Shown here piece after piece: positions 16,615 through 26,062 of a stretch of 64,000 nt of DNA (positions within the stretch are counted from its first letter, which is position 1; each line of letters opens with the position of its first letter). The DNA is taken from positions 1-64,000 of the forward strand of contig NZ_RJTN01000014.1 of NCBI RefSeq assembly GCF_005497185.1, written 5' to 3'. Position numbers and translations under genes: made by a program. This DNA comes from Pectobacterium polonicum (GTDB lineage: Bacteria > Pseudomonadota > Gammaproteobacteria > Enterobacterales > Enterobacteriaceae). The notes under the pieces are model-generated. The model was not told the DNA's origin. It saw only the letters and a program-made list of their open reading frames with translations, and ran no database searches.

Positions 16615-17580
16615 ATGCCGCAATTAAGTGAAATTTTTTACACTTCACAGGAAAATATCAACTGGCATTTAGACAGCATTGTTGATGGATTAAAAGACGT
16701 TCGTCAGCAATGGCGTGATAAATACCTACAGAGTGATTATCATAATAAGCGCCTTTTCCCCTCGAAAGAGAATGTCAGTAGTATTGTCGATACGTTATCA
16801 AAAATTTTGTACCCCATGCGTTTAGGTGCCACCGATCTTAAAAAAGAAAGTGAAGACTATTACGTAGGGTATCTACTGGGTAACGTGCTCGATCGTCTGG
16901 CTGAAGAAGCCCTATTGGAGCAGCGTTATAACGCTGGCGAATCATCCCATCTGGATAATACGCAGACTGGCGATCAACGTGTTATCAGTCGCATCAAGCG
17001 GTTCGCCGCGCAGTTGCCTGAAATACGCAAACTACTCGACAGTGATATTCTGGCTGCCTATCAGGGTGACCCCTCTGCGCGCAGTATTGATGAAGTGCTG
17101 TTGTGCTACCCAGGTATTCACGCCGTGATTCATTACCGTTTAGCTCATGTGCTTTACCAACTGGATTTCCCGCTACTGGCGCGAATAATCACAGAGAAAG
17201 CGCACAGCCAGACGGGTATCGATATTCATCCCGGTGCGCAGATTGATGAAGGATTTTTTATCGATCACGGCACAGGCGTGGTAATTGGTGAAACGGCGAT
17301 TATTGGAAAGCGAGTGCGTATCTATCAGGCCGTCACGCTGGGGGCGAAGAACTTCATTACTGATAGCAATGGGAATTTGAAAAAACGCTATCCTCGCCAT
17401 CCGATTATCGAAAATGATGTGGTGATCTACGCGGGCGCGACATTGCTGGGGCGTATTACTATCGGTGCACGTTCGAGTATTGGCGGTAACGTGTGGTTAA
17501 CTCGCGACACGCCGCCGGACAGCAATATTCGACAAGCTAATCTATTACAAAGCCAATATAAAGATGGTGATGGGATTTGA
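16615..17580 (+). CDS. epsC: Serine O-acetyltransferase (EpsC/SrpH type)
   Basis: The 321-residue protein ends in a left-handed beta-helix hexapeptide domain (IHPGAQIDEGFFIDHGTGVV, IGETAIIGKRVRIYQAVTLG, then TIGARSSIGGNVWL), with the catalytic His in the DHGTG motif. An N-terminal helical domain of about 170 residues precedes it, longer than in housekeeping CysE and typical of the EpsC/SrpH branch. It makes O-acetylserine from serine and acetyl-CoA, the substrate of the next gene. This branch is a known neighbour of family 2A encapsulins. The coding sequence is more AT-rich than the genes after it. Confidence 0.9.
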   Translation: MPQLSEIFYTSQENINWHLDSIVDGLKDVRQQWRDKYLQSDYHNKRLFPSKENVSSIVDTLSKILYPMRLGATDLKKESEDYYVGYLLGNVLDRLAEEALLEQRYNAGESSHLDNTQTGDQRVISRIKRFAAQLPEIRKLLDSDILAAYQGDPSARSIDEVLLCYPGIHAVIHYRLAHVLYQLDFPLLARIITEKAHSQTGIDIHPGAQIDEGFFIDHGTGVVIGETAIIGKRVRIYQAVTLGAKNFITDSNGNLKKRYPRHPIIENDVVIYAGATLLGRITIGARSSIGGNVWLTRDTPPDSNIRQANLLQSQYKDGDGI

Positions 17581-17759
17581 TTTTCTCATTATTTACTCTC
17601 TGGTTTTATTTTAAATAATAAGTTATCGATATTTATATTTTCTATGGCGGAGCTAAATAATAAGTTTTTATTATGATTATCTCTGTTTTTTAAATAGAGG
17701 CTCCATTTTTTTCTTTAATTAAAAATAAAGAATAAATAGCCCTGCTTACGGAAATAAGT

Positions 17760-18659
17760 ATGAGTATTCTTGATCTTGTCGGAAATACGCCATTGTTAGC
17801 ACTGCCGCATTTTTCTGAAAAAACGCCGGGTGTTTCTCTGTTGGCAAAAGCGGAGTTTATGAATCCCAGCGGTTCGGTAAAAGATCGGGCTGCAAAAGCT
17901 ATGGTGCTTGACGGTATTGCTCAGGGGAAGCTCGTGCGTGGAAAGACGATCATTGACGCCACCAGCGGCAATACGGGTATTGCCTACGCGATGATCGGTG
18001 CGGCGCTGGGGTATGACGTGGTGCTCTATATGCCGCAGAACACCAGCAATGAGCGTAAACAGATTATTCGCCATTACGGTGCGACGATCGTAGAAACCGA
18101 TCCGCTAGAAGGTTCCGATGGGGCTTATCTGGCGGTAAGAACGCAGGTGGAACAAGACCCCGAACGCTATTTTTATCCCGATCAATACAACAACCCCGTT
18201 AATGCCCATACACATTTTTCCACAACTGGTTGGGAAATTTGGCAGCAAACGCACAAGCGTATTACGCATTTTATCACCAGCATGGGCACCTCTGGCAGCT
18301 TTGTCGGCAGTGCGCGGCGACTAAAGCAGGAAAATCCTCGTATTCAAACATTAGCGGTACAGCCTGCGTCTCCTCTGCATGGTATTGAGGGCACCAAGCA
18401 CATGGCTAGCAGCATCAAACCTGGCATTTTGGATGAAACTTTGCAGGACGGCGTGGTGACGGTAACGACGGAAGAAGCCTATGCCACCACTCGTCATCTG
18501 GCGAATTGCGAAGGTATTTTTACCGGCATCTCTTCGGGTGCCAATGTGGCGGCAGCCTTGAAGCTAGCTCAGACGCTGCCGAGCGGGTCTGTGGTTGTGA
18601 CACTGCTTTGCGATACCGGTTCGCGCTATCTGGCAGATCCTTTTTGGAATGAAAGCTGA
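17760..18659 (+). CDS. Cysteine synthase family protein (O-acetylserine sulfhydrylase, CysM-like)
   Basis: This is a 299-residue PLP enzyme with the lysine motif NPSGSVKDRAA (Lys41), the substrate loop DATSGNTGIAYA and the phosphate-binding stretch GTSGSFVGSARR. It would replace the acetyl group of O-acetylserine with sulfide or with a protein-bound thiocarboxylate. The next three genes encode a JAMM peptidase, a ThiS-like carrier and its activating enzyme, as in the actinobacterial CysM/CysO/Mec+ route. The carrier is therefore the likely sulfur donor. It follows the acetyltransferase by 179 AT-rich bases and shares one base with the peptidase gene. Confidence 0.88.
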   Translation: MSILDLVGNTPLLALPHFSEKTPGVSLLAKAEFMNPSGSVKDRAAKAMVLDGIAQGKLVRGKTIIDATSGNTGIAYAMIGAALGYDVVLYMPQNTSNERKQIIRHYGATIVETDPLEGSDGAYLAVRTQVEQDPERYFYPDQYNNPVNAHTHFSTTGWEIWQQTHKRITHFITSMGTSGSFVGSARRLKQENPRIQTLAVQPASPLHGIEGTKHMASSIKPGILDETLQDGVVTVTTEEAYATTRHLANCEGIFTGISSGANVAAALKLAQTLPSGSVVVTLLCDTGSRYLADPFWNES

Positions 18660-19087
18660 TGATTCGATTAACAACGGAAACGGAGCGCCTGATTCGAGTA
18701 GAGGGCGAAAAAACGTACCCCAATGAGTGTTGCGGTGCGCTATTGGGGAGTTTTGACAAGAACGGTGATGCACAAGTGACGGCGCTACTGCCCATCGTCA
18801 ACGCGCGCGAGGCGCAGGAGCAATATCACCGTTTTATCATCACGGCGGACGACTACCTATTGGCAGAACGCACGGCGCGAGCGCAGGACATTGACGTGGT
18901 GGGTTTCTACCATTCGCATCCGGATCATCCGGCCATCCCGTCCGAGTATGACCGTGAGCATGCCCTGCCGTTTTATGCCTACATCATCGTTGCCGTTGCC
19001 AAGGGGCAATCTACCGATCTCACCAGTTGGCGGTTGACGCAGGATCGGCAGCGTTTTGAACAGGAAGTGGTCGACATTGCGCAGTGA
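18659..19087 (+). CDS. M67-family JAMM metallopeptidase (Mec+-like)
   Basis: The 142-residue protein carries a full JAMM zinc site: Glu23 in PNECCGALLG, His85 and His87 in FYHSHPDHP, and Asp98 after Ser95 in PSEYD. Such peptidases release cysteine from the C-terminus of a sulfur-carrier protein (Mec+ acting on CysO-Cys) or trim carriers to expose Gly-Gly. The start codon overlaps the end of the cysteine synthase gene, and a ThiS-like carrier follows, so this carrier is the expected substrate. The carrier's extra C-terminal residues make a trimming role plausible as well. Confidence 0.87.
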   Translation: MIRLTTETERLIRVEGEKTYPNECCGALLGSFDKNGDAQVTALLPIVNAREAQEQYHRFIITADDYLLAERTARAQDIDVVGFYHSHPDHPAIPSEYDREHALPFYAYIIVAVAKGQSTDLTSWRLTQDRQRFEQEVVDIAQ

Positions 19088-19162
19088 TCAGCAGCGATAA
19101 GCAGTAACAAAGTGATGGGGACGATGTGCCCTGATGTTGAACATGGCAGAGAGAGCATAACG

Positions 19163-19453
19163 ATGGCAGTGACATTATTGATTCCGACCGCATTACGCGC
19201 TTTTACCGACGGTCAGGGGAAAGTGAGCCTGGAAGGTGAAACGGTTGGGCAACTGGTGGCGGCATTAGCCGCTGGCTACCCCGATATTCATCAGCATCTC
19301 TATGAAGAGAATGGTTCGCTGCGCGCTTTTATCAATTTATACGTAGGTGAAACCAATATAAAAACCACTGGTGGTTTAGATACACCGGTTAAAAGTGGCG
19401 ACGAGGTCCTTCTGGTGCCTGCCATTGCGGGTGGTGCCGGAGTGCTGGCATGA
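19163..19453 (+). CDS. ThiS/MoaD-family sulfur-carrier protein (CysO-like) with C-terminal extension
   Basis: Ninety-six residues from ATG 19163. The beta-grasp features are visible: LLIPTALRAFTDG, a GETVGQLVAALAAGYP helix, LRAFINLYVGE and KSGDEVLLVPAIAGG. In active carriers Gly-Gly is terminal and becomes a thiocarboxylate. Here it is followed by AGVLA before the stop. These five codons include the GGAG ribosome site of the next gene, whose ATG overlaps the stop (ATGA). Either the tail is cut off by the adjacent JAMM peptidase or the carrier is inactive. A start at 19112 is less likely. Confidence 0.87.
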   Translation: MAVTLLIPTALRAFTDGQGKVSLEGETVGQLVAALAAGYPDIHQHLYEENGSLRAFINLYVGETNIKTTGGLDTPVKSGDEVLLVPAIAGGAGVLA

Positions 19454-20625
19454 GTATTCCAAGCATTATCCCCGACGACCGTCTAACGGAACTGTCACAC
19501 GCGGAGATCGCACGTTACAGCCGCCATCTGCTGCTGGCGGAAGTCGGGCTGGAAGGGCAACAACGCCTGAAAAGTGCACGCGTATTGCTGATTGGTACGG
19601 GGGGGCTGGGTGCACCGGTCGCACTGTATTTGGCTGCCGCAGGCGTAGGAACCATTGGCATCGTGGACTTCGATTTTGTCGAAGTATCCAACCTGCAACG
19701 GCAGATAATCCACAGCACCAAGGATATCGATCGCCCCAAGGTGGCGTCCGCCAAAGATAAAATCCGGGCCATCAATCCGGATATTGAGGTCGTGACCTAC
19801 AACACGCAGCTCAGTAGTAAAAATGCGTTGGATATCATCCGCGATTACGACCTCGTTGTTGATGGCACCGATAACTATCCTACCCGCTATCTCATCAACG
19901 ATGCCTGCGTACTGCTCGGTAAACCTAATGTGTACGGCTCTATTTTTCAGTTTGAAGGTCAGGCGAGTGTGTTCTATGCCAAAGCGGGCCCGTGCTATCG
20001 CTGCCTCTACCCGACGCCACCGCCTCCAGGGCTGGTACCTTCCTGTGCCGAAGGCGGTGTAGTGGGCGTGCTGCCGGGGATTATTGGCACCATTCAGGCT
20101 GCAGAGGCCATCAAGCTGATCGTCGGCGGTAGTGAGAGTCTGATCGGGCGTCTGCTGTTATTCGACGTATGGGAGATGAAACAGCGCGAGCTGAAGCTGG
20201 AAAAGGACGCCAACTGTCCGGTTTGTGGCGAGCACCCGACAATTCATGCGCTGATCGACTATGAGGAGTTCTGTGGCTTAAAACCTAACGAAGAAGAGGT
20301 GCCGATCGAAAGCGTCACGGCTCGCGAGTTGAAAGCGTGGCTGGATGCGGAGAAGCCGCTACAACTGATCGATATTCGTGAGCCACACGAGCGGGCGATC
20401 GTGAAGTTCCCCGATGCCAAGGTGATTCCGCTTGGGCAGATCGTGCGTCGTATTGATGAATTCGATCCTGCTGTGGATGCCGTGTTCCTCTGCAAAATCG
20501 GGCAGCGCAGTCTGTTTGCGATACGCGCCTTGCAGCGGGCTGGCTATACCGGCCGGGTATTAAATTTAAAAGATGGCATTAACGCGTGGGCGCAGGATGT
20601 GGATACCCGCCTGCCGCAGTACTGA
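19450..20625 (+). CDS. moeB: MoeB/ThiF-family carrier-activating enzyme with C-terminal rhodanese (MoeZ-like)
   Basis: The 391-residue fusion starts with an E1-like adenylating domain: nucleotide loop GTGGLGAPVALYLAAAG (about 49-65), DFDFVEVSNLQRQ (73-85), and structural zinc pairs Cys182/185 and Cys256/259. A rhodanese domain occupies about 288-391 with active Cys348 in CKIGQR. Such proteins adenylate the carrier's C-terminal glycine and transfer sulfur to it from a persulfide. The desulfurase encoded two genes later can supply that persulfide. It overlaps the carrier gene by 4 bp. Confidence 0.9.
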   Translation: MSIPSIIPDDRLTELSHAEIARYSRHLLLAEVGLEGQQRLKSARVLLIGTGGLGAPVALYLAAAGVGTIGIVDFDFVEVSNLQRQIIHSTKDIDRPKVASAKDKIRAINPDIEVVTYNTQLSSKNALDIIRDYDLVVDGTDNYPTRYLINDACVLLGKPNVYGSIFQFEGQASVFYAKAGPCYRCLYPTPPPPGLVPSCAEGGVVGVLPGIIGTIQAAEAIKLIVGGSESLIGRLLLFDVWEMKQRELKLEKDANCPVCGEHPTIHALIDYEEFCGLKPNEEEVPIESVTARELKAWLDAEKPLQLIDIREPHERAIVKFPDAKVIPLGQIVRRIDEFDPAVDAVFLCKIGQRSLFAIRALQRAGYTGRVLNLKDGINAWAQDVDTRLPQY

Positions 20626-20681
20626 AAACGCAGGGCAGTGTAAACATCACTTATTGAAAGTAAAACCTAAGGGAAAACATC

Positions 20682-21626
20682 ATGACAGATAAAAACGTTC
20701 TGAACGCTCTGGGACGCGACGCCGCGTATCAACTCGCCAACGTAACTAAAACAGCACCACAGTTTGGGGCAATTACCCCGCGCTGGGTCAGTTATTTTCT
20801 GGATTACAAGGGATTAGAAGCTGGGATCTATCGCGTTAACAAAGTTGTGGAAGGCGATACGCCGCTGGATGCGCTGTGCAGCCAGGACCCGACCCAGACC
20901 GAAATCCCTAAAGGGTATATCGAATACCAAACGCAGCCGCGTGAATATCAGTTGGATTCTCTCGCGACGATTATTAATGTCGATACCAAAATCGCGGATA
21001 TTTACAGCTCACCGTTCGATCAGGCTTCCGAACAAATTGCGTTGGCGATTGAAAGCTTGCGCGAGCGTCAGGAAAGCCAGCTAATCAATAACGATGATTA
21101 TGGCCTGCTCAAGAATATCGCTGATTCTCAGCGGATCCAGACGCGCAATGGACGACCGACGCCGGATGATTTGGATGAGCTGATTTCTAAAGTATGGAAA
21201 GAGCCGTCGTTTTTCCTTGCTCACCCGCGTGCTATCGCCGCGTTTACCCGTGAAGCGACTCGGCGCGGTGTTCCGCCCGTCACGGCTAACCTGCACGGCG
21301 GGACTTTTATTCTGTGGCGCGGTATCCCTGTGATCCCTTCTGACAAGCTGTTCGTTGACGGTTTGAAGAACCCGAAAGGTAAGGGCGGTAAAACCAACAT
21401 TCTGCTGATTCGCTCTGGTGAAGCCAAGCGCGGCGTGCTGGGCCTGTATCAGTCAGGGTTGCCAAATGAACAATCTCGCGGCTTATCTGTACGTTTCCGT
21501 GGCATTGATGACAATGGCGTTGCTTCTTACCTGCTTTCACTCTATTGCTCCGCTGCCATTCTGGCCGATGATGCTATCGCCGTATTGGAAGATGTTGAAG
21601 TAGGTGAATATTATGACTACGAATAA
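20682..21626 (+). CDS. Family 2A encapsulin nanocompartment shell protein (SrpI-like)
   Basis: The 314-residue protein matches SrpI-type encapsulins from memory of that family. Marks include QLANVTKTAPQFGAITPRWV near the N-terminus, DIYSSPFDQASEQI, the block ERQESQLINNDDYGLL, ADSQRIQTRNGRPTPDDLDE, KVWKEPSFFLAHP, ATRRGVPP, and the closing SLYCSAAILADDAIAVLEDV. The HK97-fold shell self-assembles into a protein cage. In family 2A the cargo is the adjacent cysteine desulfurase, and the compartment is linked to sulfur metabolism. It sits 56 bp after moeB, and its last 14 bp overlap the desulfurase gene. Confidence 0.93.
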   Translation: MTDKNVLNALGRDAAYQLANVTKTAPQFGAITPRWVSYFLDYKGLEAGIYRVNKVVEGDTPLDALCSQDPTQTEIPKGYIEYQTQPREYQLDSLATIINVDTKIADIYSSPFDQASEQIALAIESLRERQESQLINNDDYGLLKNIADSQRIQTRNGRPTPDDLDELISKVWKEPSFFLAHPRAIAAFTREATRRGVPPVTANLHGGTFILWRGIPVIPSDKLFVDGLKNPKGKGGKTNILLIRSGEAKRGVLGLYQSGLPNEQSRGLSVRFRGIDDNGVASYLLSLYCSAAILADDAIAVLEDVEVGEYYDYE

Positions 21627-23097
21627 TCTTTCGCTGCCGGGGATTCCCGGCCCGTGGCCAGGCAGTGGTGAGCGTCCGCTGTCAGCCCGAGATTACGGCC
21701 TGCCGGACGAGCGCGATTTGCTCGCGTTATTTGCGAGCAGAAGCCATCCACAGGGCGCGCCGGACCCAGCCTATGTGCCGAAAGTAGTGCCCTACGGTCA
21801 GGATATCGCCGTGCCCTCGGGGGCAACGGTACAACGATTGGGGGCAGCGTCTTCATCCGTGCCTGCACCGCTGGCGCGTGTTGGACATGTTCCCGTAGAA
21901 CAGATCCGCGCCGATTTCCCAATCCTGTCTGAACAGGTTGACGGCAAGCCGCTGGTCTGGCTGGACAATGCGGCGACGACTCAACGGCCAAGACAGGTTA
22001 TTGATCGCATCAGCCATTTTTACCTGCACGAAAACTCAAATATTCATCGTGCGGCGCATACGCTTGCCGCGCGCTCGACCGATGCTTACGAGGCTGCGCG
22101 AGATAAGGTGGCACGTTTTATCGGTGCGGGCAGTTCTGACAATATTGTGTTCGTACGCGGCACGACAGAAGGGCTGAACCTGATAGCTCAAAGCTATGTC
22201 AAACCGCTGTTACGTCCAGGAGATGAGATCATCCTGACGTTGCTGGAGCACCACGCCAATATTGTGCCGTGGCAATTGGTGGCTCAGGAGACTGGTGCGG
22301 TGATCCGTGTGGCGCCGGTGGATGAACACGGACAGTTGATTATTGAAGAGTATGTTCGCCTGTTCAATGACAAAACGCGTTTTGTTTCAGCCACCCACGT
22401 TTCCAATGCGTTGGGAACAGTGACGCCAATACAGGAGTTGGTAGCAATCGCCCACCGCTTTGGTGTACGTATTGCTATTGATGGTGCCCAGTCAATTTCG
22501 CATATCCCTGTGAATGTGACGACGCTGGATGCTGACTTCTTTGTCTTTTCCGGCCATAAAGTATTCGGGCCCACCGGTATCGGCGTGGTGTATGGCAAAA
22601 AGGATGTGCTGGAGGAGGCTCGCCCGTATCAGGGGGGCGGCAATATGATCGCCGATGTGACCTTTGAGCTGACACGTTACCAGCCTGCACCGAACAAGTT
22701 TGAGGCCGGAACGGGTAATATTGCTGACGCCGTCGGGCTTGGCGCGGCTATCGACTACGTCACTGCGCTGGGGATTGAGAATATCGCCCAGTATGAGCAT
22801 GCGCTATTGGAGTACGGGATTGAGAAATTGTCACGGATTCCCGGGCTTAAACTGATCGGCACCGCTGCCCAGAAGACCAGCGTATTGTCGTTTGTGCTGC
22901 AAGGCCATGAAAACGAAGCGATAGGGCGTTACCTCAGTCAGGCGGGTATTGCCGTACGCTCTGGGCACCACTGTGCTCAGCCTATTTTGCGTCACTTTGG
23001 CTATGAAAGTACGGTGAGACCTTCTCTCGCCTTCTATAACACCCCGCAGGAAATTGATTTTCTGGCAGAAAAGATCTCACAGCTGGCAGCACGCTAA
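21613..23097 (+). CDS. Cysteine desulfurase, encapsulin cargo (SufS-like with N-terminal extension)
   Basis: 494 residues from ATG 21613. Residues about 95-494 are a SufS-type class V aminotransferase: start EQIRADFPIL, PLP lysine Lys316 in FSGHKVFGP, and active cysteine Cys454 in RSGHHCAQP. Residues 1-93 are an extra region rich in Pro, Gly, Ala and Ser (LPGIPGPWPGSGERPL, then LPDERDLLALF). This is the kind of disordered cargo-loading segment seen in family 2A cargo. The enzyme takes sulfur from cysteine as a persulfide. AGGTGA lies upstream and the start is inside the shell gene, so expression is coupled. A strong terminator follows. Confidence 0.93.
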   Translation: MTTNNLSLPGIPGPWPGSGERPLSARDYGLPDERDLLALFASRSHPQGAPDPAYVPKVVPYGQDIAVPSGATVQRLGAASSSVPAPLARVGHVPVEQIRADFPILSEQVDGKPLVWLDNAATTQRPRQVIDRISHFYLHENSNIHRAAHTLAARSTDAYEAARDKVARFIGAGSSDNIVFVRGTTEGLNLIAQSYVKPLLRPGDEIILTLLEHHANIVPWQLVAQETGAVIRVAPVDEHGQLIIEEYVRLFNDKTRFVSATHVSNALGTVTPIQELVAIAHRFGVRIAIDGAQSISHIPVNVTTLDADFFVFSGHKVFGPTGIGVVYGKKDVLEEARPYQGGGNMIADVTFELTRYQPAPNKFEAGTGNIADAVGLGAAIDYVTALGIENIAQYEHALLEYGIEKLSRIPGLKLIGTAAQKTSVLSFVLQGHENEAIGRYLSQAGIAVRSGHHCAQPILRHFGYESTVRPSLAFYNTPQEIDFLAEKISQLAAR

Positions 23098-23204: not shown

Positions 23205-23551
23205 TTATTCCTCTCCCCGTTTCAACCCTTCCCAACTCAGTCCAAAACGTGCCAGATATTTGCGCAGTCGGTCAGCGTCGTTGGGCTTTTGTTTTTGCTG
23301 ACGTGAGACGGCGAACAGGCGACGGCCAGCGTTGGAGAGCGAATGGGAGGTGCGGCAGACATCAAGCACGGTTTCGAGCTGGCGCTGCTCGAAGAGGTCG
23401 ATGTTGGCGAGTTCGGGCGGTAGCGCGGTTGCTGGCGCATCACTTCGCCAACTGGCTTGCAGATGAGCAATTTCCTCCTCTACCTGTGCCACGGTGATAC
23501 GGCCTTGTTCGGCTAGCGTCGCCATGCGGGCGAGTTCGCGGAAGTTGCCGC
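23205..23551 (-). pseudogene. Partial duplicate of the rtcR 3' end
   Basis: The frame ending at 23205 reads ELANIDLFEQRQLETVLDVC and DADRLRKYLARFGLSWEG, almost identical to the last 105 residues of the intact RtcR at 24473-26062. There are a few substitutions and a different tail. Compared with rtcR, a 12-bp piece is missing near 23531. Homology stops at about 23551, where it joins a fragment of the gene at 15626. It has no start region and lacks the ATPase domain, so it cannot make a working regulator. Confidence 0.85.
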
Positions 23552-23601: not shown

Positions 23602-23722
23602 ATTTTGGAATGGTGTTCGCAGAAATGGGTTCAACTCTGGAAATAAGCGGGCTTCTTCTTTTTTAATTGGCCGTGGTAAAGGATATTGCGGTGTTTGCGA
23701 AAAATGACGACAGGGAGTGGTT

Positions 23723-24076
23723 TTGAAGAAATTCGCATTTGTTAACGATGCCGCTGAAAGTGAATACAGAGCGCTTCCTGCGGATATACAGGATGAGTTT
23801 GGAAAAGACTTACGCCTCATTCAGTATGGGCAAGATCCTAAATTGCCAATTGATTTTCTTGATGGGGTTGGTATCGGTGTTATCGAACTAAAGATAAACG
23901 GTAGTCCTGTATATCGATGTGTCTATGTCGCTAAATATCTTGATACCGTGGTGGTTTTGCATTCCTTTAAGAAAACGACCAATAGCGTTGATCGTAAAGC
24001 TAAAGAGGTGGCTGAACAGCGGCTCAAAGCGCTTATGGCCGATGTCAGAGAGGCTGAGCGTTGTAAAAAACGTTAA
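23723..24076 (+). CDS. Gp49-like RelE/HigB-family toxin
   Basis: The 117-residue protein has the pattern of phage-derived Gp49-like/HigB toxins. Its features are an N-terminal LPADIQDEFGKDLRLIQ helix, a central ELKINGSPVYRCVYVAKY strand pair, VVVLHSFKKTTN, and a lysine-rich C-terminal helix (KAKEVAEQRLKAL). AGGGAG at 23712-23717 is correctly spaced for the TTG at 23723; a GTG at 23717 would overlap the ribosome site. The family cleaves mRNA on ribosomes. Its gene faces the antitoxin-like gene tail to tail with a 4-bp overlap, which is unusual for such pairs. Confidence 0.75.
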   Translation: MKKFAFVNDAAESEYRALPADIQDEFGKDLRLIQYGQDPKLPIDFLDGVGIGVIELKINGSPVYRCVYVAKYLDTVVVLHSFKKTTNSVDRKAKEVAEQRLKALMADVREAERCKKR

Positions 24077-24390
24077 GTTGCCGATTCGGCTTCAGTGATT
24101 GTGATTGACGCCTGATGTGGGCTTGGCATCGACATTTTCGCTCGGAAACCGAGAGCGTCTAACATGTCGAACATGGCATCAATAGTGAAAAGCTCTATCT
24201 TGGCATTTTTCAGTTCTGAAACGCGCGACTGGTTGATGCCGAGTTTTTCCGCTGCCTCTTTTTGTGTCCAACCTTTCTCTTTGATTAAATTAGTGATCAT
24301 GATCGATAAATCCATTTTCATTGCCATCTTGCTGGCAACTTCAGCGTCATGCGTCACATGAAACGGACTTTCGTAGAATTTTAACGCCAT
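24073..24390 (-). CDS. XRE-family helix-turn-helix protein (HigA-like antitoxin)
   Basis: The product is 105 residues. A helix-turn-helix occupies about residues 38-62 (KGWTQKEAAEKLGINQSRVS), followed by ELKNAKIELFTIDAMFDMLD, typical of the XRE proteins paired with Gp49-like toxins. The N-terminal HVTHDAEVASKMAMKMDL is also characteristic. It is encoded opposite to, and overlapping, the toxin gene, so the two are separately transcribed. The upstream 24391-24472 contains ATTTAGATAA-like AT-rich repeats that may be its operator. Confidence 0.75.
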   Translation of the reverse strand: MALKFYESPFHVTHDAEVASKMAMKMDLSIMITNLIKEKGWTQKEAAEKLGINQSRVSELKNAKIELFTIDAMFDMLDALGFRAKMSMPSPHQASITITEAESAT

Positions 24391-24472: not shown

Positions 24473-26062
24473 TTACTTTCTGTTGCCAGCCTCCCTCACC
24501 CCCTCCCAGCTCAGTCCAAAACGTGCCAGATACTTCCGCAGTCGGTCGGCGTCGTTGGGCTTTTGTTTTTGCTGGCGTGAGACGGCGAACAGGTGGCGGC
24601 CGGCGTCGGAGAGCGAATGGGAAGTGCGGCAGACATCGAGCACGGTTTCAAGCTGGCGCTGCTCGAAGAGGTCGATGTTGGCGAGTTCGGGCGGTAGCAC
24701 GGTTGCTGGGGCATCGCTCTGCCAACTGGCTCGCAGGCGAGTGATTTCTTCCTCTACCTGTGCCACGGTGATGCGCCCTTGTTCGGCCAGCGTCGCCATG
24801 CGGGCGATGGATGAACCGAGTTCGCGGAAGTTGCCGCGCCATACGGCCTGCGGTGAGCAGGCAAAGGCGAGGTAGCGTTGTCGCGCGTCTTTATCGAAGC
24901 GGATCTGCGTTTGGTGATCGCGTGTGAAGCGTTGGAGTTCGTAGTCAATATTCGGTTCGATATCTTCCCGACGTTCCGCTAACCCCGGTAGAGGGAAGGT
25001 CCACATGTTGATACGCGCATAAAGATCTTCACGAAACTTGCCCTGTGCAATCCACTCGCGCAGGTTGCGGTGCGTGCCCGCAATTAACTGGAAATCGCTG
25101 CTGACTTCTTTATCCGAGCCAAACGGCAAAAAGCGTTTTTCTTCAATGGCCTTGAGCAGCATCGCCTGTTCGTCCAGCCCCAGTTCGGCAATTTCATCCA
25201 GAAACAGCATCCCGCCGTTCGCTTCACGCAGCAGCCCGCTTCTCGCCTGTAACGCACCGGTAAACGCGCCTTTTACGTGGCCGAATAGCGTCGACATCGC
25301 GTTGTCACCGCGCAGCGTGGCACAGTTAACCGCAACAAAACGGCCGCTGACCAGATGGCGTGATTGACGTAACTGATAGATGCGTTGAGCCAGAAAGGAT
25401 TTCCCCGCACCGGTCGGGCCAGTTAAGAGCATTGGTGCGGTGGAGCGCAGTGCGACGCGCTCAATCTGATCGATCAGCGCATTAAACGTGGTATTGCGCG
25501 TCTCGATGCCCGATTTCAGGAACGAGACGGAACGCTCCTGCTCGTGTTGGAAACGGCTGGTGAGGGTAGCGTAGCGGCTAAGATCCAGATCGATGACGGC
25601 GTAGATGCCCTGCGGTGCGGGGCGATCCGCTTTCTCCCCAGGCGCGGTTTGCAGCAGCTTGGCAGGCAGATAGCGGGCCTCGGTCAGCAGGAACCAGCAA
25701 ATCTGCACGACGTGGGTGCCGGTGGTGATGTGGACAAAATACTCTTCGTTCTCGGTATCGAACGGGTAGCGGCTCGCAAAGTCCAGAAAGGCGCTGTAGA
25801 CCTCTTCCAGATTCCACGGGTCGCGCAGTTCAACGGCCTGAAGCGTGACCTGTGTAGCGGGTGACACCACGGCGATATCCTCCGCCACCTGCTGTGCCAT
25901 TCCCTCGTTGCGTGATTGGTGCAGCAGTTCCAGGCGATCGACCGGAAAATCCGGCTGCTGACACAGGCCGACGGTAGGCCGCCATTTCGTCCAGCGATTC
26001 TCCCGTTTACCCCGTCTGTCCAGCGTAGTGCCCAGCACACCAATAACGACGCGACGCTTCAT
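24473..26062 (-). CDS. rtcR: RNA repair operon regulator RtcR (sigma-54 activator)
   Basis: 529 residues. The first 180 or so form the RtcR-specific sensory domain (related to CARF domains). A sigma-54 AAA+ domain follows, with Walker A GPTGAGKSFLAQ, the sigma-54 contact loop GAFTGA and Walker B GMLFLDEIAEL. A C-terminal helix-turn-helix region completes it. RtcR activates the rtc genes when RNA damage signals are sensed. It is divergent from rtcB with a sigma-54 promoter between them. Its 3' 340 bp are duplicated at 23205-23551. Confidence 0.93.
   Translation of the reverse strand: MKRRVVIGVLGTTLDRRGKRENRWTKWRPTVGLCQQPDFPVDRLELLHQSRNEGMAQQVAEDIAVVSPATQVTLQAVELRDPWNLEEVYSAFLDFASRYPFDTENEEYFVHITTGTHVVQICWFLLTEARYLPAKLLQTAPGEKADRPAPQGIYAVIDLDLSRYATLTSRFQHEQERSVSFLKSGIETRNTTFNALIDQIERVALRSTAPMLLTGPTGAGKSFLAQRIYQLRQSRHLVSGRFVAVNCATLRGDNAMSTLFGHVKGAFTGALQARSGLLREANGGMLFLDEIAELGLDEQAMLLKAIEEKRFLPFGSDKEVSSDFQLIAGTHRNLREWIAQGKFREDLYARINMWTFPLPGLAERREDIEPNIDYELQRFTRDHQTQIRFDKDARQRYLAFACSPQAVWRGNFRELGSSIARMATLAEQGRITVAQVEEEITRLRASWQSDAPATVLPPELANIDLFEQRQLETVLDVCRTSHSLSDAGRHLFAVSRQQKQKPNDADRLRKYLARFGLSWEGVREAGNRK

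What the first reader, a model, noticed from the sequence alone, without database searches (positions are those of the whole stretch)
19163..19453. Sulfur carrier with five residues beyond Gly-Gly, next to a JAMM peptidase
The ThiS-like protein ends AIAGGAGVLA. Carriers need a terminal Gly-Gly to be adenylated. The neighbour is a JAMM peptidase with all zinc ligands. In QbsD/QbsE-type systems a JAMM enzyme trims the carrier tail. The extra codons also contain the next gene's ribosome site, so the tail could be kept by translation coupling. Inference: the peptidase may mature the carrier and later release cysteine.
Basis: partly seen in the sequence, partly recalled or inferred. Interest (0 to 1): 0.72.

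Follow-up and report, generated by a model that had tools for sequence, protein, structure and literature searches.

The report
Self-trimming sulfur carrier beside encapsulin shell
A small bacterial sulfur-carrying protein is made with five extra end residues that a neighbouring zinc peptidase probably cuts off, and the pair sits in a gene cluster with a protein shell thought to handle sulfur, which suggests a built-in way of turning that sulfur back into cysteine.

Summary
In detail: window 19163-19453 encodes a 96-aa ThiS/CysO-type carrier ending Gly90-Gly91-AGVLA, next to a JAMM peptidase with an intact active site. A tail is common in this carrier family. In a sample fetched with a query lacking the C-terminus, 67 of 95 stand-alone relatives run past Gly-Gly and 7 more are fused to an E1. 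Tails of two or more residues, or fusions, have a JAMM gene beside them in 27 of 31 cases, against 19 of 71 with shorter or no tail; this contrast is not independent of ancestry. Translational coupling is not the general reason for the tail.

Shells with this module group together on one branch yet come from several phyla. In shell-first sampling of Spirochaetota, 7 of 7 such shells have the JAMM-carrier-E1 core, and all 7 carriers run past Gly-Gly. I propose that the module rebuilds cysteine from shell-handled sulfur. The parts are known kinds; the searches I ran found no paper describing the combination.

The parts
16615..17580 (+). EpsC/CysE-type serine O-acetyltransferase, 321 aa
   Evidence: NCBIfam EpsC 167.8 bits, cut-off 150; cysE model 168.6 bits, under its cut-off of 210.65
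17760..18659 (+). CysM/CysK-type cysteine synthase, 299 aa
   Evidence: PALP 249.5 bits; NCBIfam cysM 343.2 bits, under its cut-off of 394.2; closest solved relatives 2jc3/2bhs, cysteine synthase B
18659..19087 (+). JAMM (Prok-JAB) peptidase, 142 aa, start overlaps the CysM stop
   Evidence: PF14464 82.2 bits; E23, H85, H87, S95, D98 invariant in 18 sequences
19163..19453 (+). ThiS/CysO-type sulfur carrier precursor, 96 aa
   Evidence: PF02597; best solved relative CysO 3dwg, which ends at Gly-Gly; beta-grasp-like model pLDDT 87.9
19436..19450 (+). five tail codons (AGVLA) after Gly90-Gly91
   Evidence: pLDDT under 50 for residues 89-96
19450..20625 (+). E1-like adenylyltransferase with C-terminal rhodanese domain, 391 aa
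   Evidence: ThiF 280.4 bits and Rhodanese 45.9 bits
20682..21626 (+). family 2A encapsulin shell protein, 314 aa
   Evidence: NF041162 484.3 bits, cut-off 380
21604..23097 (+). cysteine desulfurase, probable encapsulin cargo, 497 aa
   Evidence: NF041166 797 bits, just under its cut-off of 800; SufS family 533.7 bits, cut-off 475.1

Best explanation
The carrier is made as a precursor. The JAMM peptidase encoded just upstream cuts after Gly91 and removes AGVLA (inferred). The exposed Gly-Gly is adenylated by the E1 domain and given sulfur by its rhodanese domain as a thiocarboxylate (inferred from family). CysM adds it to O-acetylserine supplied by the operon's serine acetyltransferase, giving a carrier-cysteine adduct (inferred). 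The JAMM peptidase then also releases cysteine (inferred from Mec+). The same operon encodes a family-2A encapsulin and a cysteine desulfurase of its cargo type (shown by sequence), so the module probably turns shell-handled sulfane sulfur back into cysteine (inferred).
For: Intact JAMM motif. Unbiased sample: 67 of 95 stand-alone carriers have a tail; 7 of 7 E1 fusions and 20 of 24 tails of two or more residues have JAMM in the locus; 27 of 31 against 19 of 71, Fisher p 1.4e-8, not corrected for ancestry. A natural JAMM-carrier fusion (L033) models as two confident domains (pLDDT 88.4, pTM 0.69) that match JAMM folds (2kks Z 18.6; PfJAMM1 with SAMP2, 5lda, Z 18.1; CsRpn11-ubiquitin, 6fnn, Z 16.9) and carriers (1v8c Z 15.5; CysO 3dwg Z 15.0). 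The tail is predicted disordered. JAMM cleavage of a Ub precursor after Gly-Gly is published (PMC6043591, passages). The CysO thiocarboxylate / CysM / Mec+ cycle is published (PMC3227635, passages). Encapsulin linkage: 34 of 34 linked carriers have residues past Gly-Gly and 33 of 34 have JAMM (29 of the 34 from a search whose patterns included the Gly-Gly-Ala stretch); shell-first Spirochaetota 7 of 7; module shells on one side of one branch, 100/100.
Against: No cleavage, thiocarboxylate or cysteine release was measured. The tail-JAMM contrast is not independent of ancestry: only 5 supported independent pairs, and they show no signal. Any tail against no tail, stand-alone only, gives no contrast (30 of 67 against 9 of 28, p 0.36). 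33 of 43 one-residue tails have no adjacent JAMM; 27 of the 29 genomes behind the loci hold a Prok-JAB match elsewhere, but 8 of 14 control genomes do too. 9 of 28 tail-less carriers also sit beside a JAMM gene, so there it must do something else. Residues after Gly-Gly are not conserved. CsRpn11 did not process SAMP precursors, so JAMM enzymes are choosy and a neighbour need not be the trimmer. 11 other Pseudomonadota genomes with related shells show no module, so the shell type as a whole does not need it. CysM is missing from 2 of 7 Spirochaetota stretches.
Confidence: 0.66

Rival explanations
1. The tail is a by-product of translational coupling: the carrier frame runs on to overlap the E1 start, and the tail is trimmed incidentally by a general protease.
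For: 8 of 8 enterobacterial loci have the ATGA overlap and exactly five tail codons; many other encapsulin-linked loci overlap the E1 start too. Tail sequence is variable.
Against: Tails persist without overlap (L015, L028, L029), and carrier-E1 fusions exist; Shine-Dalgarno strength is no better than in synonymous recodings. It does not explain how Gly-Gly is freed.
Confidence: 0.17
2. The JAMM enzyme acts only as a Mec+-type or desampylase-type enzyme, releasing cysteine or removing carrier-protein conjugates, and the tail is removed by another protease; or the carrier is a protein modifier.
For: 9 of 28 tail-less carriers have an adjacent JAMM; the CysO/Mec+ pair works with a carrier that ends at Gly-Gly; the JAMM matches the desampylase model, below its cut-off (66.5 bits against 130).
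Against: 7 of 7 fused carriers, whose internal Gly-Gly needs a cut to be freed, have JAMM in the locus. CysM and serine acetyltransferase in the operon point to cysteine rather than protein modification.
Confidence: 0.14
3. The tail is never removed and the carrier is inactive or acts without thiocarboxylate, for example as a structural subunit.
For: One-residue tails often lack an adjacent JAMM (33 of 43).
Against: 102 of 103 carriers fetched with a query lacking the C-terminus keep Gly-Gly, and all 34 encapsulin-bearing carrier loci up to L089 (one a copy of the window) have an E1 hit.
Confidence: 0.03

Closest known systems
CysO / CysM / Mec+ / MoeZ cysteine pathway of Mycobacterium tuberculosis
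   Same: Carrier, cysteine synthase, JAMM and E1-rhodanese parts; the carrier's closest solved relative by sequence is CysO
   Different: CysO ends at Gly-Gly; here a five-residue tail, serine acetyltransferase and an encapsulin are present; the closest solved relatives of this CysM are 2jc3/2bhs, and no chain of the CysO complex entry was among the 60 of 105 rows shown
ThiS/MoaD + JAB + E1-rhodanese + cysteine synthase operons (Iyer 2006, Table 1 row 4c, PMC1779556)
   Same: Same four-gene core
   Different: No serine acetyltransferase, encapsulin or cysteine desulfurase in the row as read
QbsE/QbsD and PdtH/PdtG siderophore sulfur transfer
   Same: Carrier with JAMM and E1-rhodanese (Iyer 2006); a short tail trimmed by QbsD is recalled (Godert 2007, not held)
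   Different: No AMP ligase or CoA transferase in this operon; product is probably cysteine
CsUb/CsRpn11 and CsSAMP/CsJAMM precursor processing (PMC6043591)
   Same: JAMM enzyme frees Gly-Gly of a beta-grasp precursor (passages)
   Different: Archaeal modifiers, not a cysteine operon
Family 2A encapsulin with cysteine desulfurase (SrpI/CyD)
   Same: Shell over the family cut-off, desulfurase and serine acetyltransferase (S. elongatus locus)
   Different: S. elongatus has a stand-alone cysteine synthase and rhodanese, other members read here have fewer partners; the window has a carrier module instead

Membership tests
Family 2A encapsulin system | Shell protein over NF041162 cut-off | tested here: met
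   484.3 bits against 380
Family 2A encapsulin system | Adjacent cysteine desulfurase cargo with N-terminal targeting domain | tested here: inconclusive
   Desulfurase present; 797 bits against cut-off 800 and its N-terminus is outside the profile match. About 100 residues precede the catalytic domain in P. betavasculorum and P. fontis; I see no clear LARLANEFFS motif (named in PMC8049743, passages) there, by eye only
CysO/Mec+ carrier-dependent cysteine pathway | Carrier related to CysO | tested here: met
   E 2.4e-18 to 3dwg chain C
CysO/Mec+ carrier-dependent cysteine pathway | Carrier encoded with C-terminal Gly-Gly | tested here: not met
   AGVLA follows Gly-Gly
CysO/Mec+ carrier-dependent cysteine pathway | Cysteine synthase using carrier thiocarboxylate | not testable with these tools
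   CysM gene present; substrate not tested
JAMM/MPN+ metallopeptidase | E + HxHx7SxxD motif | tested here: met
   E23, H85, H87, S95, D98 invariant in 18; fold of a related fusion matches PfJAMM1 Z 18.1
QbsE/QbsD-type tailed carrier with trimming JAMM | Tail beyond Gly-Gly and adjacent JAMM | tested here: met
QbsE/QbsD-type tailed carrier with trimming JAMM | Siderophore genes (AMP ligase, CaiB-like CoA transferase) in the operon | tested here: not met
   Seven successive genes 16615-23097, none of these
QbsE/QbsD-type tailed carrier with trimming JAMM | Tail removed by the JAMM enzyme | not testable with these tools
   needs mass spectrometry

The most novel reading that the evidence does not exclude
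One horizontally spread group of family-2A encapsulins carries its own carrier-protein pathway that draws sulfane sulfur from the shell-enclosed desulfurase store and rebuilds cysteine. The carrier is made as an inactive precursor, so that the JAMM enzyme both switches the pathway on and releases its product.
Probability: 0.38. Interest if true: 0.76.

Novelty: new variant of a known kind. Interest (0 to 1): 0.55.

Why it matters
How sulfur in family-2A encapsulins is taken out again is, as far as I know, open. An operon that pairs the shell with a carrier-based cysteine module gives a defined, testable withdrawal route. The tailed carriers and the carrier-E1 fusions also give a simple test of whether one JAMM enzyme does both precursor maturation and product release.

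Tried and rejected
Alanine after Gly-Gly looked nearly universal at first (77 of 87 carrier frames). I rejected this as a bias: one search had picked loci partly with the peptide pattern VPAIAGGA. With a query cut before Gly-Gly the next residue varies (67 stand-alone tails: C 17, K 12, R 11, A 10, L 6, others 11).

Selection for a ribosome site in the tail codons: not seen. Independent-pairs test of tail against JAMM: too few supported pairs. The first mixed JAMM/carrier alignment mis-registered; I tested subsets and in the end used A4. The distance from Gly-Gly to the JAMM zinc site in the L033 fusion model could not be measured, because no coordinates are laid in the box; so the model says nothing about docking. 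A blastn of the JAMM-carrier-E1 region found no match in the E. coli collection. The paper on QbsD/QbsE (Godert 2007) is not held; the sulfur-storage encapsulin paper (Benisch 2024) is recalled and was not found. HcyS/HcyD of Wolinella is recalled; none of the 8 of 19 papers listed holds HcyD.

Searches for an encapsulin linked to ThiS/MoaD/JAMM genes in print: (the listings of 60 and 100 are capped, 10 of 221 and 15 of 65) and term look-ups inside two papers. None found; the held library lacks most subscription papers, and supplements were not open.

Rows dropped before counts: L132 (no Gly-Gly) from the 103; L003, L004, L093, L204 as copies of the window; L209-L212 from the shell tree, as second stretches of the shells in L205-L208; L040 from the second shell tree, as a copy of L241. 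The searches gave loci only for the best 29-30 matches each, so weaker matches there were not examined. One of the 11 Pseudomonadota comparison genomes (G669) has only about 1.3 kb of contig upstream of its shell, so the module's usual place cannot be judged there; four others (L205-L208) have longer shell frames of 471-520 residues with an insertion, probably family 2B rather than 2A, and were read over 3.7 kb only.

Full report
What is there. Window 19163-19453 (+) encodes a 96-residue ThiS-family carrier ending VPAIAGG-AGVLA. Its closest solved relative by sequence is CysO of M. tuberculosis, which stops at Gly-Gly. The model of the window protein is confident (pLDDT 87.9) except for residues 89-96, Gly-Gly included, which fall under pLDDT 50. 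The stop codon overlaps the start of an E1-rhodanese gene. The gene upstream is a JAMM peptidase with E23, H85, H87, S95 and D98, invariant among 18 aligned sequences. The same genome holds two other PF02597 carriers, and both end at Gly-Gly.

The operon. From 16615 to 23097 seven genes follow on one strand: serine acetyltransferase, CysM, JAMM, carrier, E1-rhodanese, family-2A encapsulin shell and cysteine desulfurase. The nearest named relatives are Pectobacterium betavasculorum and P. fontis (98% carrier identity). In a family-wide sample only 4 of 198 genomes, the window's own included, have this carrier at E <= 1e-6, so its distribution is patchy.

Is the tail unusual? First pass: 80 loci, where 77 of 87 carrier frames read GG-A. 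That set was biased, because one search pattern was VPAIAGGA. I therefore searched again with residues 1-86 only and examined the 103 loci returned beyond the window's own. One lacks Gly-Gly. Of the other 102, 7 are fused to E1 and 95 stand alone: 28 end at Gly-Gly, 43 have one extra residue and 24 have two or more. So a tail is common, and the residue after Gly-Gly is not conserved. In three fusions E1-rhodanese follows the carrier directly; in the other four about 120 residues, rhodanese-like by eye, lie between carrier and E1.

Tail and JAMM. JAMM lies in the same locus in 7 of 7 fusions, 20 of 24 long tails, 10 of 43 one-residue tails and 9 of 28 tail-less carriers. In the biased set 22 of 23 fusions have it; the exception is L054. 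Grouped: 27 of 31 against 19 of 71 (Fisher p 1.4e-8), or 27 of 31 against 19 of 43 without the Pseudomonadota-phylum sample (p 2e-4). Any tail against none, stand-alone only, gives no contrast: 30 of 67 against 9 of 28 (p 0.36). The rows share ancestry, and on a tree only 5 supported independent pairs exist and they carry no signal. Among 28 loci I chose for lacking an adjacent JAMM hit or having only a weak or distant one, 27 genomes hold a Prok-JAB match, as do 27 of the 29 genomes behind the loci; the control genomes give 8 of 14, so this is weak evidence. The fusions are the best argument: their Gly-Gly is internal and must be freed.

Translational coupling. In 8 of 8 enterobacterial loci the tail is five residues with an ATGA overlap. 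Elsewhere in encapsulin-linked loci tails run from 1 to 69 residues, and in L015, L028 and L029 the nearest possible E1 start lies 19 to 122 bases past the stop while the tail remains. Pairing with anti-Shine-Dalgarno is strong, but no stronger than in synonymous recodings, probably because glycine codons provide it. Coupling may set the tail length in enterobacteria; it does not explain tails in general.

Structure and precedent. A Treponema MAG locus (L033) has JAMM and carrier in one open frame. Its model (pLDDT 88.4, pTM 0.69) matches 2kks (Z 18.6), PfJAMM1 alone and with SAMP2 (Z 18.1), CsRpn11-ubiquitin (Z 16.9), 1v8c (Z 15.5) and CysO (Z 15.0). In print, CsRpn11 cuts the CsUb precursor precisely after Gly-Gly, does not cut SAMP precursors, and is blocked by bulky residues after the cut; CsJAMM-mediated CsSAMP processing is mentioned (PMC6043591, passages). 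Ala-Gly in the window would suit such an enzyme, but the wider family is not limited to small residues (16 of 30 JAMM-adjacent stand-alone tails). CysO thiocarboxylate, CysM and release by Mec+ are described in PMC3227635 (passages). The four-gene core is row 4c of Iyer 2006 (PMC1779556, passages and section 12). Trimming of QbsE by QbsD and of HcyS by HcyD is recalled, not seen.

The encapsulin link. Among 34 encapsulin-linked carriers, 34 run past Gly-Gly and 33 have JAMM in the locus; the exception, L028, has only 237 bases before the carrier. Of these 34, 29 come from the biased search. The shell-first check has no such bias: of 373 Spirochaetota genomes, 8 pass the shell cut-off. Seven shells, 76-79% identical to the window's (one is the genome of L040, the anchor), all have JAMM, carrier and E1 beside them; 5 of 7 have a CysM hit in the operon; all 7 carriers continue past Gly-Gly, two as E1 fusions. 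The eighth genome, with two tandem longer shells (55%), lacks the module. Of 11 other Pseudomonadota genomes over the shell cut-off none shows it (7 read over 9-15 kb, one of them with little upstream contig; 4 with longer, probably 2B shells, read only over 3.7 kb), nor do 5 plasmid-collection loci. An Aliarcobacter plasmid does. In a tree, 29 module shells and 16 others lie on two sides of one branch, support 100/100; with the new shells, 35 and 17 do, SH-aLRT 98. This is a clade if the root lies outside, as the longer shells suggest. The 45-row tree holds the Pectobacterium shells L010 and L011 rather than the window's own. The module side mixes Pseudomonadota, Campylobacterota, Bacillota, Thermodesulfobacteriota, Spirochaetota, Synergistota, Planctomycetota and Myxococcota, which points to transfer of the whole unit.

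Most likely mechanism. JAMM frees Gly91; E1-rhodanese makes the thiocarboxylate; CysM with O-acetylserine makes the cysteine adduct; JAMM releases cysteine; the sulfane sulfur comes from the shell's desulfurase. Shown: gene content, conservation, predicted folds. Inferred: every chemical step and the sulfur source. Storage of sulfur in the shell is proposed as one model in PMC8049743 (passages); its demonstration elsewhere (Benisch 2024) is recalled.

Novelty. The parts and the trimming logic are known. I found no description of the union of a tailed-carrier module with one encapsulin group (some listings capped, most subscription papers not held). PMC8346489 names serine O-acetyltransferases and rhodaneses as the most enriched partners. 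I file it as a new variant of a known kind.

Noticed in passing
window 23205-23525 (-) and 24473-26062 (-): A 106-aa partial second copy of the C-terminus of an RtcR-like regulator (312 bases at 91% identity; the name is recalled), with a toxin-antitoxin-like pair (23717-24076 + and 24073-24390 -) between the copies.
   Followed up: partly
L033 7575-8276: Treponema MAG locus where JAMM and carrier share one open frame with no stop between them.
   Followed up: yes
L090 (Aliarcobacter cibarius plasmid): Encapsulin plus carrier module on a plasmid typed as mobilizable; an IS110 transposase lies between JAMM and carrier and an IS5 transposase between the E1 and rhodanese parts.
   Followed up: no
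L064, L082, L087: Carriers with 80-94 residues after Gly-Gly, perhaps an extra C-terminal domain; no JAMM hit was seen in these loci.
   Followed up: no
L092 (Rhizobium plasmid): A carrier that appears to end at Gly-Gly with an E1 and no annotated JAMM, inside a cluster with YcaO, TfuA and LanM genes; possible sulfur donor for a modified peptide.
   Followed up: no
L205-L208 and L244: Longer shell frames (471-520 residues) with an insertion, single in L205-L208 and two in tandem in L244, next to a desulfurase; probably family 2B.
   Followed up: no
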